Shown in pieces: positions 1 to 62,519 of a stretch of DNA of 64,000 bases. Source of the DNA: Siderastrea radians (taxonomy: Eukaryota > Cnidaria > Anthozoa > Scleractinia > Rhizangiidae); NCBI GenBank assembly GCA_964017195.1, contig OZ024890.1, positions 23,931,201 to 23,995,200 on the forward strand, in the 5' to 3' direction. The position numbers and the translations under genes are program-made. A model generated the notes under the pieces. The model ran no database searches, was not told where the DNA came from, and was given only the letters and a program-made list of their open reading frames with translations. Each line of letters starts with the position of its first letter. The stretch's first letter is position 1.

Positions 1-170
1 AATAAAAAAAACATATTCGAAAGGACCAGCGTTACCATTTCACTGAAGGAACAAAATAAAAATTAAAATTCGAACGGACCAGCGTTATCATTCCACGCGG
101 TAAGGACTGGGGCTTGGCTGGCTTTTTCAAGATGGCGGCCGTGTTGTGATTTCAGCCGTGGATATCGCTA
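1..170 (+). repeat. Left terminal inverted repeat
   Basis: Pairs with 5242-5425. It contains two tandem copies of a ~55-base unit (about 1-50 and 51-100), each with the core GGACCAGCGTTA followed by a CATT-type tail. The inner half includes the CAAGATGGCGGCC string typical of animal core promoters (YY1-type). The integrase ATG at 191 follows directly, so the TIR probably supplies the promoter. Confidence 0.85.
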
Positions 171-770
171 TTTCTGTAACGCAGTAAAGTATGGCCTCGA
201 GGAGTGAATGGAAAGAGGATAATCAGTTGGAACACGACTTAAGAAAGTACGTCAGTCAAAATTTAAAAAGGTCAGAGATTCTTGACTTTGTTCAGAGAGA
301 TTTTTCTGAATATACTTGGAGTACAGCAACCCTTGACCGACGACTTCGCCACTTCGGTATATATTATATAAATTATGATATCCCAGTTGAAGCTGTGTCA
401 GATGCTGTCCAGAAAGAGTTGGAGGGGCCTGGAAAATTGTTAGGCTACAGAGCAATGAATCAGAAGCTGAGAACAGAGCATAACGTACAGGTACCACGCC
501 ATCTTGTTTACAACGTGATGGCTGAATTGGATCCCGAAGGGCTCGAGGCCAGAAACCTTCAACAAAAAAAGAAAAAAAAAAAGGGTCACTTCACGTCTGA
601 CGGACCGTTGTGGGTGGTTTCCTTAGATGGCCACGACAAACTATGTGGTTATCAAAACTCCACATTTCCACTGGGTGTGTACGGCTGTATTGACACATTT
701 GCTCGCAAAATCCTCTTTTTGTTTGTATGCTACTCAAATTCGAACCCTTTAGTCATAGGCAAGATGTACA

Positions 771-1925
771 GACGCTTTGCTAGCTATTCAGCACACTGTA
801 TACAGCTACTTAGATCAACCTGACTGCAAAGCTGTACGTCTTTTTACTATGGATTTTAGTAAGGCTTTTGACTCTGTCAAACACTCCTTACTACATGAAA
901 AACTGAAAAACCTTCCACTGAACCCCTATGTTATCAATCTCTATCTGGATTTTGTAAAACACAGGCAACAAAGAGTCGTCCGTCCACAATACATTTTCAG
1001 GGCTTTGGAAAGAGGTCAATCAAGGCACTACTCAGGGTAGTGTCAGCGGCCCCTACCTATTCAATATTTTTCTAAATGACCTCGAGATTAAAAATGGCTC
1101 TACAGCTTGTTTGTATAAATATGCGGACGACTCCACCATTATTGCACCGGTGTGGAGGGATATAGACTGTTCAAACGAGTTAGTAATGCAGTTCTTAGAA
1201 TGGTCAAAAAACAACTGTATGACCTGTAATCCTAGTAAATGTAAAGAACTTGCCTTTGTGAAAAAAGGCAATGCACAAATCTTTGAGAGAGTAGCTGGAA
1301 TACCTCAGGTTAAGGAACTTGTTCTGCTGGGTGTTACTTTCCAGTCTGACACCCGATTTAACACTCATGTAAAGAACAAACTCACAAAAGCAAACAAGTC
1401 TCTCCATGTGCTCAGGACGCTTAGAAGAGAGGGGTACAATCAATCAGAAATTGACTACCTTTTCAATTCTATTGTACTACCAAATATCTCATACGGGCTT
1501 GCGGTGTACGGAGCCGCTAAAGCTGAACTAACAACGATCCAGTGTTTTTTGGATAGGTGTAAGAAGCGTAGGTACATCTCACATAGCATAGATATCCAAG
1601 ATCTTTTAGAAAAACAAGGTAAGAAAATATGCACTAAAGTTATGGGCTTAGAGGGTCACCCGCTGTATAACATGTTGCCGGAGGTTAAGTACACCAAATA
1701 CGAGCTTAGAAGAAAGTCGGCTGTGAAACCTAAAATAAACACGAAGCGCTTCATGAGCTCTTTTATTAACCGCCTTACTTTTAAATACAAATTAGCTGAT
1801 TTATTTCATTAGAATAATAGTCTTAGTTCATGTAATGTAGCTTGCTTTTTACCATCAATTTTTGTGACATAGGATATGTGTATATCTTATGAAATAAAGA
1901 CTTATTATTATTTATTATTATTTAT
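771..1925 (+). mobile_element. 5'-truncated LINE inserted in the integrase gene
   Basis: Reverse-transcriptase coding sequence starts abruptly at about 771 in mid-domain and runs to a stop near 1812. A short 3' UTR follows, with an AATAAA at about 1893 and a (TTA)n tail ending near 1925, after which integrase coding resumes. Abrupt 5' truncation plus a simple-repeat tail is the mark of target-primed reverse transcription. The 3' tail type and RT sequence suggest a CR1/L2/Rex-like clade; the clade is inference. Confidence 0.85.
777..1812 (+). pseudogene. Non-LTR reverse transcriptase fragment
   Basis: C-terminal half of a LINE polymerase. Seen in order: [14 protein letters not shown] (RT block with catalytic Asp, about 845-885), [14 protein letters not shown] (about 1025-1065), the catalytic YADDSTI motif (about 1120-1140), then thumb and C-terminal sequence to the stop at 1812. 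A frameshift lies near 985-995: the first block is in one frame, and the GTTQGS and YADD blocks share another. The N-terminal endonuclease and the first RT blocks are missing. The copy is a dead truncated insert. Confidence 0.9.
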
Positions 1926-2548
1926 TTGAATCAGTGATGCTGCCAAGAAATCTGCGAGTTGATAGAGGAACAGAAACTGGGAAAATGGCCACAATTCACG
2001 TATTCCTTTTAAACCGGCATGGGATTATGGATGATCCCACTGATTCCATTATTTACGGTCCCTCGACAAGCAGCAAAATAGAGCGATGGTGGCGTGAATT
2101 ACACGAAAGATTAGAGAAGTTTTTTAAAGAACAACTGACAGCACTTTTAAGAGGAAGAGAATATGACCCACATGTGGCACTTGACAGACAACTGCTTGCT
2201 TATGTCTTCAGACCAATTGTCCAGCGGGAGTGTGACATATTTGTCAACTACTGGAATTTTCATAGAATTCGAGGGCAAGATAAACTAGAAATTCCAGCTG
2301 GGGTACCAGATCACATGTTTTCTTTCCCGGAGCAATATGGGGGCACCAATATGGGGATCCCATTGAGCAAGGATGAATTAAAAGAGGTTGCTGATATATC
2401 TGGTGTCATGGATGAAGATGTGTTGGATTTTATTGACCCAAGAGTGAAGAGGGAATGTTTGCAACTCCTTTCAAATCCAGAAAGAGTGGAATTAAAGAAT
2501 GCTATTGAAGCATTTCGGTTTCTTAAGAGGAGTATTACATCTCCTTAG

Positions 2549-4288
2549 GATACTGGATAAAATCAACATATGTATTTTTAATACAATCAGAACAGCTGAG
2601 TTCTTGTTGAATGTTTATTTCCTGACAGTTGAACTTGGGCAAAATGTTTATCATCCATAAGGCCAACCTGAGTATTGTTTGCAACTAGGCCCATTTTTGA
2701 GTACACAAAATCATACACACAAGCGAACAAGGCTGGCAAGGCTGATTAGCATGAATATAAAAGATTAATTAAATGCCTGCCATTCATGCATTTGGTCTAG
2801 AAATTAGAGGTATAAAATGGTTCTGTGGATCATAATCCCCAAGAAGAGAGGTCCTTTACCTATCAGTTTTTACTTTGTTTCCATGGTAACAATGTTAGCT
2901 GCATGGGGGCATGGGACCATAGTGCCCCCAAGATATGTAAGTCAATGGGGCAACAAGTGACCTGTATGGGGGCACTTCATGCCAAACTGATAACTTTTAT
3001 TAACAACTTTCATTAAACTATTTAAATTTCAAACAATGTTGGTGCTTTATGAAGTTCACAGCAGTGCAGCGGCTCTGCTCTACACAGTTCATAGCAGTTA
3101 AAATTTCAACAATAAATGTCCAAAAATGCAGGTGCTCTGCACAGTTCAGAGCAGTTTAAATTTTAAACAATGAATGTCCAAAAATGCAGGTGCTTTATAC
3201 AGTAGATAACAGCATAGAGCTGACTAATGGTAACTGTGAGCGAGTCCACAAAGTCATAATAGAAGAATCTGTGATACTTGTAAATAACATTTTTAGATGT
3301 GCAAAGAATTAATGCTGAACTTAGTCACTTAAATACAGCCTAGTAACACATAGAGCTAAAGGTAATAAATACAGCCTAGTAACAAATACAAGTGAAGGTA
3401 AGGCTTTACTGACCAAAGTAGAAGGTTCAATGTGTCATATGCTTATTAAACCCAACAGTTCATTCGGAGAAGGGTGGAAGGGAGGGAAATAGCTTTAAAC
3501 AAGGCTAAAAAAATTGAGGCTTTGAGCCCAAAAGTATATCAACCAGTTATTTTACTGTGCTGTCCACATGTGAAAGGATGTGTGCTATTGGTCAGTGTAT
3601 GGAATAATAATAAATACATGCCATGTTTTGCCACGGACATTGTATGATCTATGACCCTTGATCATCGTAAGGGGATTTCCCGGATAGCATGTGACACATT
3701 GCCCATGTGTGTCCTGGTTGAGGCATTAACTTAAATTTATGAATTGGCTTGTAAATAGGATGACTCATCCTCTGCATTGTTCCAAATTATAATGACCCAT
3801 ATAAAAATGATGGGGGTGCTCATCAGAAATTTTCAAAGAACACTCTAAAAAGTAAGTTTTAAACAACATGAGACATTCTGTCACGTTTTTTTTTCGGCTC
3901 AGTACCCTAAAAGGTGCTGCAATAATTCCAACCATCATCATTTTAGATTTCAGCAACTCAAAACCAGTCTACAAAATTTGACCCCAATGATTCCCCCCCC
4001 CCCTCTCCTGAGTACTTGATGTGTTGGCCATACATTTCCTTAAAATCAAAACTGAAGCAAAAATTGTAAAGTAAACACAAAATCATGTATTTTAAGACAT
4101 AGCACCACTTGTTGAATGTTTTGTAATCAGATTGTCGAGAAACAAAGATTTCATGCAGTAATGCAAACAACAACAGTGTTTTGTCATTAAACACAGATCT
4201 TTACGGCAACGAGGGGAAATATCAAAATAGATGTTTGTATTTTAGCATAAACTTCAAGGGAAGCACAGCATAGAATCCTCACGATTTT
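2549..4288. other. Non-coding middle of the kinase-bearing transposon
   Basis: No convincing gene. It holds degenerate short tandem duplications. One unit of roughly 65 bases, with the core AAAATGCAGGTGCT and CAGTTCANAGCAGTT, occurs about three times at 3020-3200. A ~32-base unit beginning AATACAGCCTAGTAACA is duplicated at about 3333-3395. A G-rich pair around GGGGGCATGGG lies near 2905-2975. The segment separates the 3' ends of the convergent integrase and kinase genes and presumably holds both polyadenylation regions. Confidence 0.6.
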
Positions 4289-5219
4289 TTAGTATTCATC
4301 TTCGATACCCATCGTATCACAATACCTATTACATTGATGCTGCTTTCTAAACTCATCGATGGTAACTTGGGATAGGTTTCCTGCACAAAAATAGTATTCA
4401 TCCGCGTTTTCCGTTGTTAATTCAGTGGTTGCAATTTCGGGATCATACAATTGAAACATGGATCCTTGAAGATCAACCAGCATCATCTTCCGCTTTGTAA
4501 AGACATAGCTATAATGTACAAGACATTGTGCTTTGGCAAAGACTTCGTCACACGCTTCCACTGGTGACGTTAAGCAAGCCCCGTTGTTGTTGACATATTT
4601 TCGGAATTCGCCAGGTACAAACTCTTCCAGTGTTACTGGAATGTCATCCAAAACCGAGTAAAATACCTTTCCATACTGGAAGGAATCCCCGAATTCTGCA
4701 GGTACTTTGGATGAAAATCTCTGAGTTATGTTCCTGGCTACTGCATGCATCTGGACCTGTTTGCGAGTGTGATCTTCCACGGTCGATTTCAAGACTTCCT
4801 TGATTGTTGTAATCGACGTCGGCGTGTATTTCTTAACAACCCAGTCGCCCAAATGGAGATGGTCGTTGCAGGTGGCTTTAGAAGCATCCCTGAATGCCCT
4901 GCTCGAGAATGGTTCGTCTTCTATCATGAAATCCAGCGTAGCAACGTTCATCCATTTACACTTCTCAACATCAAAGTTCCAGCTGTAATGCAGTAGTCTT
5001 GGGCGGTTTTACCAACTTTCCAGCTCTTAAGAGGTGGGCGATTGATACTGATTTTGGATAGACTGTATTTGGATACACTATATTTCCACTTGCACGCTTG
5101 GATGGCGCAACTGGGGCTGATCTCGCGCGCTCTGGAGGCTGCTCAAATCTTTCAACTACTTGGGGACGAAAGATGCGTTCGGCATTCTCATTAGGTGGAA
5201 GAAATCGGATGAAGTACAC
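4289..5219 (-). pseudogene. Alpha-kinase (MHCK/EF2K type) domain carried by the transposon
   Basis: Alpha-kinases are atypical Ser/Thr kinases, such as myosin-heavy-chain and EF2 kinases. The 220-residue frame at 4951-4289 shows most of the domain in order: phosphate-binding Lys in WVVKKY (residues 37-42), LEEFVPGEFRKYVNNNG (108-124), the metal/catalytic Asp in MLVDLQG (157-163), YDPEI (169-173), a weakened glycine motif GNLSQ (191-195), and the zinc-site string HQCNRYC (205-211) at the very C-terminus. An 82-residue frame (5219-4971, basic and Pro-rich) lies directly upstream in a different frame; kinase-frame coding extends a few codons above its first ATG, so a one-base shift near 4975-5000 separates them. 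It may be a mutation, an assembly error or a frameshift site. The domain itself has no internal stop. It sits just inside the right TIR. Confidence 0.85.
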
Positions 5220-5241
5220 TTCGCGACCTTTAATAGACCTT

Positions 5242-5425
5242 TAGCGATATCCACGGCTGAAATCACAACACGGCCGCCATCTTGAAAAAGCCAGCCAAGC
5301 CCCAGTCCTTACCGCGTGGAATGATAACGCTGGTCCGTTCGAATTTTTAATTTTTATTTTCTTCCTTCAGTGAAATGGTAACGCTGGTCCTTTCGAATAT
5401 ATATATTTTTTATTTTGTTCCTTCG
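5242..5425 (-). repeat. Right terminal inverted repeat
   Basis: Reverse complement of 1-170, with the same two ~55-base subunits. The kinase-side frame starts 23 bases inside it, mirroring the integrase on the other side. Confidence 0.85.
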
Positions 5426-6088: not shown

Positions 6089-6277
6089 CGGTGGAACCCC
6101 GATAAAGCAAAGAGCCAAGGGACTGGCAAAATGTGTTCGTTGGAACAGGGGTTCGTTATATCGGGGGTTCGTTTTATTGGGGTTCTTCTTTACACATTTA
6201 ACTATTACTGGGCTGGAGAATACCGTTCGTTATACCGGGGTCTTCGTTATGGGGTTCGGTATATCGGGGTTTCACCG
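6089..6277. mobile_element. 189-bp MITE, TA target-site duplication
   Basis: Terminal inverted repeat CGGTGGAACCCCGATA at the left and its near complement at the right, flanked by TA on both sides (6087-6088, 6278-6279), as for Tc1/mariner-type elements. The interior is rich in CGTTATA-type strings. A second member lies at 15392-15557. Non-coding. Confidence 0.8.
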
Positions 6278-16913: not shown

Positions 16914-18017
16914 CTAGCTAAAGCTGGCATGTGCTTTCTCGAAAAGGTCGATAAGACACTGGCCCACAGCGCCATGCCTCACTAAAGTATCGCGAAATAA
17001 TGCACACGTTCTTGATAAATATGGCGGAGTTTGAAAACCCCGGTTATGTCTGGGGATTATATTCGCTTCTTTGGCCAGCATTCCCACATAAGCATCGTCA
17101 ATTTTGAACTTAGGTATAGTGTCAAAAATTTCCACAAACGACTGCACTACATCTCGCGATAAAATATACCCAGGGCCAGCACAAAAATCCGGATAATGCG
17201 TCTCATTATATTCCTCCTGGGTTAAAAGCCATTTTCCCATTCTTTGAACTACGGGATTTTTGTACACATGCCCCATGTATAGCTTTTCTGTGGGTGTGCT
17301 AGGTTGGTTCAAGACTGCAAGCACAGCCGGAGTGTTTATAAACACATCATCATCTGCCTTCAAAAGGAAAGAAAACTGACAATATCTGGCCGCCCATTCA
17401 AAACCCATCTCCACCTTGAGAGTTTGGTTCCAGTAATCTTCATAATAGTCCGCGCGAATCAAATCGCCGTAGTGGGCTTCCTCTCGCTGAAGTTGCTCCG
17501 AGTCTGTTGTATTTCTCGATTGCCCGAGGAGGAATACTGTCTTCCAGCGAGGTTTTATGAAGCTGTCAGCAGCCCATGTTTGGCGGATTAGTCTCCGCCT
17601 GTCAAAATAGGCCGGTGCGGATGCCACTAGAATAAGAAGAAAATAGTGCTGACTGCACGGTGTTTGCGTAATCAAGGTCGTCTTGTGTTCCACAGGTGAA
17701 TCCTGCGTGGTTGGAGGTTCGCTGGTGGTGCTTGTAGGCTGAAAATTTTCCGCTGTTGTTCTCACGGGAGTTGGCTCGGATAACAGGCTTCCCGCCTCTT
17801 GTTTGGTCCCTGGAACCAATTCTATTTCTGTATATACTTGTACCGACCTTAATTGTCTTGCTCGCGCAGAATTGGAAGCATTAAACTGCCTCGAACCCGT
17901 CCAGTCTCGAATAAACACGGTAATCATTGCAACTGTCACAACCGCGTACACGAAACTGACTACTCTCTTGACGAGGCGCTTCTGCGTGCGGCTGAGATAC
18001 ATCGCATGTGAAGGCAT
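16914..18017 (-). CDS. Beta-1,3-galactosyltransferase (GT31), single exon
   Basis: A 367-residue type II Golgi membrane enzyme that adds galactose, or possibly GlcNAc, in beta-1,3 linkage to glycan acceptors from UDP-sugar. A short basic cytosolic tail is followed by one membrane segment (about residues 19-36), a Ser/Thr/Pro-rich stem (about 70-118) and the GT31 catalytic domain (about 121-350). Family motifs are seen in order: RRLIRQTW (141-148), the metal-binding DxD in ADDDVF (221-226), FCAGPGYI (278-285) and DDAYVG (307-312, the usual EDVYVG). N-glycosylation sequons occur at 197 (NQT) and 271 (NET). The length is normal and the frame intact. The first ATG is followed at once by the basic tail and anchor, which supports the start. 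Acceptor specificity cannot be told from sequence; B3GALT and B3GNT subfamilies are both possible. Confidence 0.93.
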   Translation of the reverse strand: MPSHAMYLSRTQKRLVKRVVSFVYAVVTVAMITVFIRDWTGSRQFNASNSARARQLRSVQVYTEIELVPGTKQEAGSLLSEPTPVRTTAENFQPTSTTSEPPTTQDSPVEHKTTLITQTPCSQHYFLLILVASAPAYFDRRRLIRQTWAADSFIKPRWKTVFLLGQSRNTTDSEQLQREEAHYGDLIRADYYEDYWNQTLKVEMGFEWAARYCQFSFLLKADDDVFINTPAVLAVLNQPSTPTEKLYMGHVYKNPVVQRMGKWLLTQEEYNETHYPDFCAGPGYILSRDVVQSFVEIFDTIPKFKIDDAYVGMLAKEANIIPRHNRGFQTPPYLSRTCALFRDTLVRHGAVGQCLIDLFEKAHASFS

Positions 18018-18064
18018 TGCTCAGTGCTGTACCCCTTTGTGATACAATCCTAATTGCTTTGAGC

Positions 18065-39350: not shown

Positions 39351-40473
39351 CAAGCTTAATCAATTTCAGTGTCAATCCCGACGACTGCCTGTTGAGCGAC
39401 TTCCATCAGGACTAAATTCGCCACTTCTTGACATTTTTCAAAAGCTCCTTTAGGGCAAGATATGTGGCCGTAAACGACATACCGCTGGCTATGAGCGAGC
39501 CTATAATCGGAACAAAAGGAGCGAAGCCCTCGACGGCTGCTTCCGCACTAAAGGCCTCCAGAAATGCAACAAGATGCGGAATAGTCGTCAGGCTAACTTT
39601 ACTAACTTTTTCTTGGATGGAAAAAGGAAGCGCCGCGAACTCATCCGAACCTTCCTCAGGAAGACCAAGCTGGGACCTGTAAAAGCTCACTTCCTTCAGT
39701 ATTAGCAGGGTGTCAACGCCAAAAGCCAATCCGGAAATCGGGACAACAGCAGCAGCAGCACATGCTGAAGCAACCATCCATATGCGCCCTTTGAGGACCT
39801 AAACTTTTCTTTTCAAAATTTGAGTTCACAAACTTGTTAGAATGTTCAGAGGCAAGGTCAGACTCTCTCGCTGATATATCGACAGTGCATCTAGGATGGC
39901 CTGTGTTAGTCGAGCAAAGTCCCATTTGGCAGGAACATGGCTGCTTATCAAAAATACATCTTGCTCACGGGTCAGCAGGTCACTCAGATTTTCCAAACAG
40001 TCGCGTCGGATTTTCCCCAGCACGGCATCTTCTTGGAACGCTCGCTTTCGCCTCTCGGCTCGAATATTTTCATCGATTTTTGTGCGAACGAAGAAGAATT
40101 TCTTATCAAACGATTTAATTTTCCTGGCCAACTGCAGGTCATTTTCGGTGAATCGGTTGGCTGTGAAGATAAGGAACGCGTGGAACTTCTCCAACTCCAC
40201 TTTCTTGCAGTATGTTTCCAGGTCAGGATAGTTTGGAGTCCCTATTCCTGGTAAATCCCAAAACTTTATGTTAGGATTGGTCGGGTGGTCATATGGAGTC
40301 GGATGTTTAGTGCCCTCTTTGACATCAACCTCAGCTGCCCCTTCATCGTCCTCATTAAGGCTATAAAAAACAACAATTGCTATTCAAATATTGGCAAAAG
40401 GTTTGTACATTTTATCTCTGCAGCTCTTTTCTGAGCTGTATCTGGTCATGAATTGCATTGTGTTAATATCAGT

Positions 40474-53861: not shown

Positions 53862-53940
53862 CTACTTAACCGAAATAAACCACCCAGCATAAAAAAATTT
53901 TAATTAAAGAATTACATATCTTTATTATATCCAAGTTGTA

Positions 53941-54351
53941 ATGTCTGCACTTAACATAAACATTGAAGAGTTTTTGAAAGAACTTGATCCACCAACGTTA
54001 CAAGCTTTGGAGCAATTACTTGCAGAGGACGCTCCTGCTGTTCGAAAAACTATTCAGAACATAAGGCAACAAAAAACAGCTAAATGGAAAGAGGTACACA
54101 ATGAGTTATTAAAACAACCTTTCTGTCATAACAGGCAGCAACTTGTGCGTATAATTATATGTTTAGATTATATAGACTGTCGCTGGGAAGGGCTTTGTTA
54201 TCCTTGTTTTGAGCAAGGAATCAAACATAACCTGTTGTACACTCCTCCGCTTGAGAATATACCTTTATTAAAGATTTGCTCTGATACTTACGACTGGCAC
54301 AGCGCATATAACGATTTTAAGGAATTGGTTGACCTCGGTGTGCTTTTGTGA
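53941..54351 (+). CDS. Small Cys-containing protein, paralogue of 60372-60731
   Basis: 136 residues, function unknown. The N-terminal ~45 residues are acidic and Leu-rich; then comes a core with KWKEVHNELLKQPFCHNR, RQQLVRIIICLDYIDC and GLCYPCFEQG, followed by a variable tail. The core aligns over ~50 residues with the protein at 60372 (shared pattern W..VH.ELL.QPFC..RQ.LV.II.C..Y..C....CYPC). The pairs of Cys suggest a small metal-binding or disulphide fold. An A-rich leader with CCACCCAGCATAAAAAAATT lies before it; a similar CCACCCAGTTCATAAAAAAA occurs after its stop and would precede the next gene, so it may be a promoter element. The paralogy supports a real gene. No known family. Confidence 0.7.
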   Translation: MSALNINIEEFLKELDPPTLQALEQLLAEDAPAVRKTIQNIRQQKTAKWKEVHNELLKQPFCHNRQQLVRIIICLDYIDCRWEGLCYPCFEQGIKHNLLYTPPLENIPLLKICSDTYDWHSAYNDFKELVDLGVLL

Positions 54352-60871: not shown

Positions 60872-61189
60872 TTACATTAATTCATAATCAAAATATTCAT
60901 TACCGTCAGCAGAAGTTTTGAGACCTATTTTGTAGACAAATTGATAATAATCATCTTCCATCAGGTCTTCTGTAAGTCGTTTAGGGGCCCACACACAAAA
61001 CTCATCTCCATTTTTTGTTTCTAAAGTTAAAATAGCTGAATCCCCATAGTTACCTTTTCTATATTTAACTTTTTTAATTTTGTAAATAGCGTCTGAAATA
61101 TCCCGCCATTTTAAAATTTCTTTTCTTTCAAAACTTTCCTCTGTTGGCCAGTCTTGTGAGATCGTTTGTTGATCTGTATAGACATCCAT
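60872..61189 (-). CDS. 105-aa protein of the virus-like region, unknown
   Basis: An intact frame with a beta-rich look: WRDISDAIYKIKKVKYRKG, then AILTLETKNGDEFCVWAPKR, then an acidic segment and a short C-terminal YFDYEL. An OB-fold-like nucleic-acid-binding protein is conceivable but not shown. First gene of the - strand block, pointing away from the genes to its right only in order, not direction. The start ATG at 61189 is the only one near the N-terminus. Confidence 0.6.
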   Translation of the reverse strand: MDVYTDQQTISQDWPTEESFERKEILKWRDISDAIYKIKKVKYRKGNYGDSAILTLETKNGDEFCVWAPKRLTEDLMEDDYYQFVYKIGLKTSADGNEYFDYELM

Positions 61190-61483
61190 AGTAAGAGATG
61201 TGTTGAAGATACATTTGTTTAATAGCGTGTACTTTTCTACTCGAGGTAAAATTTTGTGAAGCGCATGCGTAAAAACATCTTATTATTGCGACATTAAGGT
61301 GAAGGACAGAAAAAGGGTACCATAAGGAATAGAAGAAGAAAAATGTGTTTAATATATATTGAAAGTGATCAATATTTATTAGTTCACTCATTGGTAAAGC
61401 CTTAGGGGGGTGATGGTTATAGGGGAACTCCTTTCAGTGGGAGAGTACCCTCGGGTGAGCCCGCCTCGGCCCTACTGGTGACA

Positions 61484-61985: not shown

Positions 61986-62519
61986 CTACAATTGAGTGAA
62001 TTTTTTTTCATACTTTCTTTGAACAGATAGCGGAATTTCCATACAATGATCAGTGACGAAATTATCAATCATTTTCAGTCTATCAAAAAAGACCTTCTCG
62101 TCGAAAGCTTTGCCTCTGAGGTAAAAGCGAATCTCATCAAGAATTTTCTGGTATTCGATACGGGCAAAATTTGCTTGTTCTGTTTTCTTATCGTATTTCT
62201 TAAGGCTTGCCACTGCTTTCAAAGTAAGCCCAACACCAGTTAAAGTTGCCATGACAGCAGGGTTCAATGTAATTCCTCCGGCTACTGCGGCACTAATAAT
62301 TAATTTGCCAGCCGAAAGATTACAAACAAAATTTTTTCTTCGAAAACCGCGGTGCAACTTTTCATAGCCATAATGTTTCTTATGGTAATAAGGGTATAAA
62401 TCTCTAAGAATTTTAACTTTCTCTTTAGAAAGTGTTTGGTCGATATGATTGAATTCGAAAATGTCCTGCATTGTGTTATATAATAAATGAAAAAAATGTT
62501 TATGGAGTTCTATATTCAA
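61986..62519 (-). CDS. 177-aa protein with hydrophobic core, unknown
   Basis: The N-terminal ~65 residues are His/Lys-rich and helical (YYHKKHYGYEKLHRGFRRK). The middle (about 70-108) is small-residue hydrophobic: SAGKLIISAAVAGG and AVMATLTGVGLTLKAVASL, which would make two short membrane or capsid-lipid segments. The C-terminal ~65 residues are charged and helical. The frame is intact. The architecture fits a membrane-active or minor structural protein of a virus-like element, but I recognise no family. Next to the fibre-like gene, same strand. Confidence 0.6.
   Translation of the reverse strand: MNIELHKHFFHLLYNTMQDIFEFNHIDQTLSKEKVKILRDLYPYYHKKHYGYEKLHRGFRRKNFVCNLSAGKLIISAAVAGGITLNPAVMATLTGVGLTLKAVASLKKYDKKTEQANFARIEYQKILDEIRFYLRGKAFDEKVFFDRLKMIDNFVTDHCMEIPLSVQRKYEKKFTQL

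What the first reader, a model, noticed from the sequence alone, without database searches (positions are those of the whole stretch)
1..5425. Alpha-kinase carried as cargo by an IS3EU-like DNA transposon
Seen: a kinase domain with VDLQG, DPEI and HxCNxxC motifs sits inside the same long TIRs as an rve-type integrase. Known: alpha-kinases are normally cellular enzymes (EF2K, MHCK, TRPM6/7), and I know of no described cargo of this kind in IS3EU or Ginger elements. Inference: the kinase is a captured passenger that may modify host translation or chromatin to favour the element, or an addiction or defence-like module. This is my best candidate for an undescribed system.
Basis: partly seen in the sequence, partly recalled or inferred. 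Interest (0 to 1): 0.8.

Follow-up and report, generated by a model that had tools for sequence, protein, structure and literature searches.

The report
Broken IS3EU transposon with alpha-kinase gene
This is a dead copy of a jumping gene, apparently in an animal genome, that carries an unusual protein kinase beside its own cut-and-paste enzyme; the pairing was already mentioned for fungi, but the kinase looks like a regular working part of such elements and its job is unknown.

Summary
Window 1-~5424 has inverted repeats (173 bp aligned, 96.5%) around an rva_4 integrase-type transposase (+) and an alpha-kinase (-). The copy is dead: a retroelement fragment sits in the transposase (~779-1918), and the kinase is frameshifted at 4974/4975, has lost a conserved glycine, and lacks the ~108 N-terminal residues of its relatives.

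The kinase is not one captured fragment. A profile found 407 relatives; named ones come from cnidarians and sea squirts. Intact members are ~415 aa: a ubiquitin-like N-terminal domain (confident model, modest fold scores, no Pfam family), a linker, and a kinase domain whose catalytic and zinc positions are 95-98% conserved (column mean 59%).

The claim of an undescribed system fails: Kojima 2025 states in passing that fungal TET+ IS3EU elements carry transposase and alpha-kinase genes in opposite orientation, as here. What I did not find in print is the animal element, the family's breadth and the ubiquitin-like domain. I infer a resident helper enzyme acting on the transposase or a host nuclear factor; no substrate is known. 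Against generality: Styx, an IS3EU relative, is described without a kinase. Copy-by-copy linkage and dN/dS could not be tested; the genome search did not complete.

The parts
1..170 (.). left terminal inverted repeat, cut off by the window start; two 28-base motifs at 16-43 and 69-96
188..778 (+). transposase, first part (start to first catalytic Asp region; ORF 188-823)
   Evidence: P0245 residues 10-207 align at 191-784 (63%), P0189 residues 1-124 at 407-778 (81%); weak HTH_21 and rva_4 below cut-off
779..1918 (+). retroelement fragment inserted in the transposase; ORF 958-1812 is reverse transcriptase; edges approximate
   Evidence: RVT_1 E 2.5e-10; gap between the two transposase blocks
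1919..2548 (+). transposase, second part, integrase core with second Asp (1961) and Glu (2081)
   Evidence: rva_4 E 2.7e-13; P0189 residues 124-332 at 1919-2545, 83%
4289..4975 (-). alpha-kinase domain; conserved Gly replaced by Arg
   Evidence: PF02816 E 1.1e-27; P0002 residues 147-374 at 4975-4292, 87%
4974..5234 (-). kinase linker region in another frame (frameshift at 4974/4975); the ubiquitin-like N-terminal domain of relatives is absent in this copy
   Evidence: P0002 residues 66-146 at 5234-4974, 73%
5242..5424 (.). right terminal inverted repeat; the outer end is not fixed, a TA..TA-type end a few bases beyond 5424 is possible

Best explanation
The region is a decayed copy of a two-gene IS3EU-type DNA transposon. 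Transposase and alpha-kinase are read inward from opposite ends, so each presumably uses a promoter in or next to its TIR (inferred). The kinase is a resident second gene of this group of elements, not a chance passenger of this copy. Its intact form is a catalytically competent-looking enzyme with a ubiquitin-like (UBL) domain and basic N-terminal stretches that could be a nuclear signal (inferred). Most likely it helps the element move or be expressed by phosphorylating the transposase or a host nuclear factor of silencing or repair, which the UBL domain helps it reach. Shown: anatomy, identity of both genes, breadth of the kinase family, conservation of catalytic and zinc positions, UBL-like model. 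Inferred: residency in animal elements in general, promoters, nuclear location, substrate, helper role.
For: Both genes between one TIR pair. 407 kinase relatives, of which the best 120 are listed. In the 186 listed kinases the Lys, Glu, Asp-x-Gln, Asp and zinc His/Cys positions are 95.5-98.4% conserved (150-183 rows each) against a domain column mean of 0.588. UBL-like N-terminal domain, model pLDDT 94.4. Same gene pair and orientation in fungal TET+ IS3EU (PMC12730594). Five contigs over 100 kb, matched by identical length, hold a listed kinase and a listed transposase; chance length matches 0.004. Identity of kinase and transposase correlates over five such pairs plus the window (r 0.78, 23 of 720 permutations). 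A meeting report cites host-derived conserved proteins in diverse DNA transposons as likely regulators of transposition (PMC3520738).
Confidence: 0.6

Rival explanations
1. The kinase is a passive passenger: captured once by an ancestor of this group and carried along, with no role in transposition.
For: Linkage in animals was seen directly only here; Styx lacks it.
Against: Catalytic and zinc positions are conserved far above the domain mean over 186 kinases; a further N-terminal domain is conserved; the same pairing is reported in fungi.
Confidence: 0.2
2. Most relatives are ordinary host genes of an animal kinase family, and this element caught one of them.
For: Many relatives lie on contigs where no listed transposase was seen (56 of 61 kinases on contigs over 100 kb), and several are annotated as TRPM6-like or myosin heavy chain kinase.
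Against: Up to 112 member sequences in a kinase cluster, a wide spread of variants, and five shared large contigs. Only listed cluster representatives were compared, so absence of a transposase there means little.
Confidence: 0.1
3. The kinase phosphorylates the translation factor eEF2 or a similar cytoplasmic target and so alters host translation.
Against: Sequence is nearer TRPM7 (E 1.9e-15) than EF2K (E 0.0072); all alpha-kinases share the fold; no calmodulin-binding part was identified (not searched for specifically).
Confidence: 0.05
4. Addiction or defence-like module.
Against: The only other recognised element gene is the transposase; the ~1.7 kb between the genes holds no ORF above 80 aa; dead copies such as this persist.
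Confidence: 0.03

Closest known systems
Fungal TET+ IS3EU transposons (Kojima 2025, PMC12730594)
   Same: DDD/E transposase and alpha-kinase genes in opposite orientation inside TIRs longer than 30 bp
   Different: Those carry a TET/JBP gene between the two; none was recognised here. Whether the fungal kinases have the UBL-like domain is not known to me.
Styx of Zymoseptoria, derived from IS3EU (PMC10853768, passages)
   Same: IS3EU-type transposase plus extra genes; a two-protein IS3EU ancestor is proposed
   Different: Extra genes are GATA, CCHC and DUF3577 proteins; no alpha-kinase is named
Alpha-kinases TRPM7, MHCK-A, EF2K
   Different: No channel, WD40 or other Pfam domain found in the 5 full-length relatives scanned; instead a UBL-like N-terminal domain

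Membership tests
IS3EU DNA transposon superfamily | rva/IS3-like DDD/E transposase core | tested here: met
   rva_4 E 2.7e-13, D-D-E present; direct comparison with Repbase IS3EU entries was not possible
IS3EU DNA transposon superfamily | terminal inverted repeats | tested here: met
   173 bp at 96.5%
IS3EU DNA transposon superfamily | TA..TA termini (PMC10045372) | tested here: inconclusive
   the left outer end is outside the window; TA dinucleotides lie just beyond 5424 on the right
IS3EU DNA transposon superfamily | 6-bp target-site duplication (PMC10045372) | not testable with these tools
   left flank is outside the window and no second copy was obtained
Alpha-kinase family | alpha-kinase domain with catalytic and zinc motifs | tested here: met
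   PF02816 E 1.1e-27; motifs; fold of relative P0007. Residue roles recalled, except that PDB titles call MHCK-A D756A and D766A inactive. In the window copy one conserved Gly is Arg.
Ubiquitin-like (beta-grasp) domain, in intact relatives only | fold match over the whole N-terminal domain | tested here: inconclusive
Fungal TET+ IS3EU elements | TET/JBP dioxygenase gene | tested here: inconclusive
   no ORF above 80 aa between the two genes, and the listed ORFs there were not scanned for TET/JBP

The most novel reading that the evidence does not exclude
A UBL-alpha-kinase is an old core gene of a major branch of IS3EU transposons shared by fungi and animals, needed for transposition or for escaping host silencing: a protein kinase that works for a DNA transposon, and a source of the large alpha-kinase families of rust fungi and corals.
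Probability: 0.3. Interest if true: 0.7.

Novelty: new member of a known kind. Interest (0 to 1): 0.42.

Why it matters
If the kinase is a conserved working part, this would be a cut-and-paste transposon that depends on protein phosphorylation, with a UBL-like domain hinting at a host partner; that is directly testable. It would also mean that cnidarian proteins labelled TRPM6-like or myosin heavy chain kinase, and the alpha-kinase family said to be highly expanded in rusts (PMC4469406), deserve a second look as transposon genes (inference).

Tried and rejected
Other collections: no relative of the kinase in viral contigs, genome contigs or phages, and none of the transposase in viral contigs or genome contigs. 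These hold mainly viruses and prokaryotes, so this says little about animals. The viral structure library gave no match at E 0.001 or less for the whole kinase model.

Contig coincidences: 182 of 186 listed kinases and 117 of 120 listed transposases have a contig length and were compared; the 7 without one were dropped. Under 10 kb there were 3 coincidences against 1.4 by chance, not used as evidence; one (2842 bases, P0128/P0239, both source lgn) is suggestive. With that pair added the identity test gives r 0.78, 67 of 5040 permutations.

N-terminal domain: the whole-model VIA run covered only the kinase domain, so the domain was folded alone. Pfam: two of 18 members matched TAFA at best E 0.027, taken as chance. 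PDB profile search: nothing below E 1.

Literature: nine searches; 35 papers hold 'IS3EU'. Of the nine papers opened, only PMC12730594 names the transposase/alpha-kinase pair. Seen: PMC12730594 passages, outline, and section 24 part 1 of 2; passages only of PMC10045372, PMC10853768, PMC5295586, PMC4150398, PMC4469406, PMC3520738, PMC9587614, PMC4455052; all others as search listings. Supplements were not open to me, and Repbase and the GingerRoot paper were not consulted; they may hold animal entries.

Full report
What is there. The window opens inside a DNA transposon. Bases 1-170 and 5242-5414 are inverted copies of each other (173 columns, 96.5%, E 3.6e-76; no further copy in the window), and each end holds two copies of a 28-base motif 53-54 bases apart, as expected of transposase binding sites (inference). 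Inside lie a transposase on the + strand and an alpha-kinase on the - strand, read inward from opposite ends, with about 1.7 kb between them that holds no ORF above 80 aa in the list. The transposase carries the Pfam rva_4 integrase core (E 2.7e-13), with D, D and E codons at 626, 1961 and 2081.

This copy is dead. Relatives align to the transposase in two blocks, ending near 778 and resuming at 1919; between them lies a retroelement fragment (RVT_1 E 2.5e-10). The kinase is in two frames that meet at 4974/4975; a glycine kept in 98.8% of 163 relatives is Arg here; and the first ~108 residues of full-length relatives are missing, the TIR lying directly upstream. The finding is thus a fossil, and the interest lies in the family.

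The families. The window's kinase piece gave 98 relatives of 181 candidates, a profile 407 of 5733, with the best 120 listed. The second transposase piece gave 143 of 256, the best 120 listed, with Stylophora, Dendronephthya, Paramuricea, Xenia, Lingula and Ciona among the names. So both genes occur in cnidarians and sea squirts, and the window is probably from a cnidarian (inference). In an alignment of the 186 listed kinases the Lys, Glu, Asp-x-Gln, Asp and zinc His/Cys positions are 95.5-98.4% conserved, while the domain's columns average 0.588. Catalytic positions are kept while the rest drifts: protein-level evidence of purifying selection, not dN/dS.

Is the pair general in animals? Only indirectly tested. 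Five contigs over 100 kb, recognised by identical length, hold one listed kinase and one listed transposase (61 and 41 proteins on such contigs; chance length matches 0.004). That equal length means the same contig is my inference, and that both genes lie in one element is not shown. As a control, like-with-like sharing is 1 of 2650 pairs (no kinase pair; one transposase pair seen in the list) against 5 of 2501, p 0.11. Kinase and transposase identities correlate over the five pairs plus the window (r 0.78, 23 of 720 permutations), less without the window (r 0.66, 10 of 120), and the Stylophora pair is discordant. Suggestive, not proof. The genome search that would settle it was unanswered in 13 of 13 tries.

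Known or new. Kojima 2025 (PMC12730594, section 4.1; [quoted passage not shown] The same pair and layout is seen here, so the combination is in print, in passing and without a function for the kinase in the parts I read. PMC10853768 proposes an IS3EU ancestor with two proteins, but its Styx element is described without a kinase, which argues against the kinase being universal. PMC10045372 gives TA..TA ends and 6-bp duplications for IS3EU, which could not be checked here. PMC4469406 calls the alpha-kinase family highly expanded in rusts; that IS3EU copies contribute is my inference. In nine searches of the held library I saw no description of the animal elements or of the UBL-like domain; Repbase could not be consulted and may hold such entries.

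How it most likely works. The two genes are expressed from opposite ends; the transposase cuts and inserts at the TIRs; the kinase, brought to a partner by its UBL-like domain, phosphorylates the transposase or a host nuclear factor and so favours transposition or expression. The first two steps follow from anatomy and family; the last is inference. A passive passenger and a host gene family remain possible; nothing here favours an addiction or defence role.

Noticed in passing
window 779-1918: 5'-truncated reverse-transcriptase retroelement (RVT_1, ORF 958-1812) followed by a TTATTA-rich tail, inserted in the transposase gene.
   Followed up: partly
window 16914-18020 (-): Single-exon galactosyltransferase gene (Galactosyl_T E 9.1e-42), apparently an intact host gene.
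   Followed up: partly
window 39826-40383 (-): Part of an interferon-inducible GTPase (IIGP E 8.8e-46), of interest for invertebrate immunity.
   Followed up: partly
window 53908-54351 (+), 60872-61279 (-), 61986-62519 (-): Three ORFs of 147, 135 and 177 aa without a Pfam match.
   Followed up: no
database proteins P0037, P0064, P0122, P0143, P0161, P0166: Cnidarian proteins named TRPM6-like or myosin heavy chain kinase belong to this kinase family; the names are probably misleading.
   Followed up: partly
window 6132-6273: Five copies of a ~23-base GGGGTTCGTTATATCGGGGGTTC-like repeat just beyond the element.
   Followed up: no
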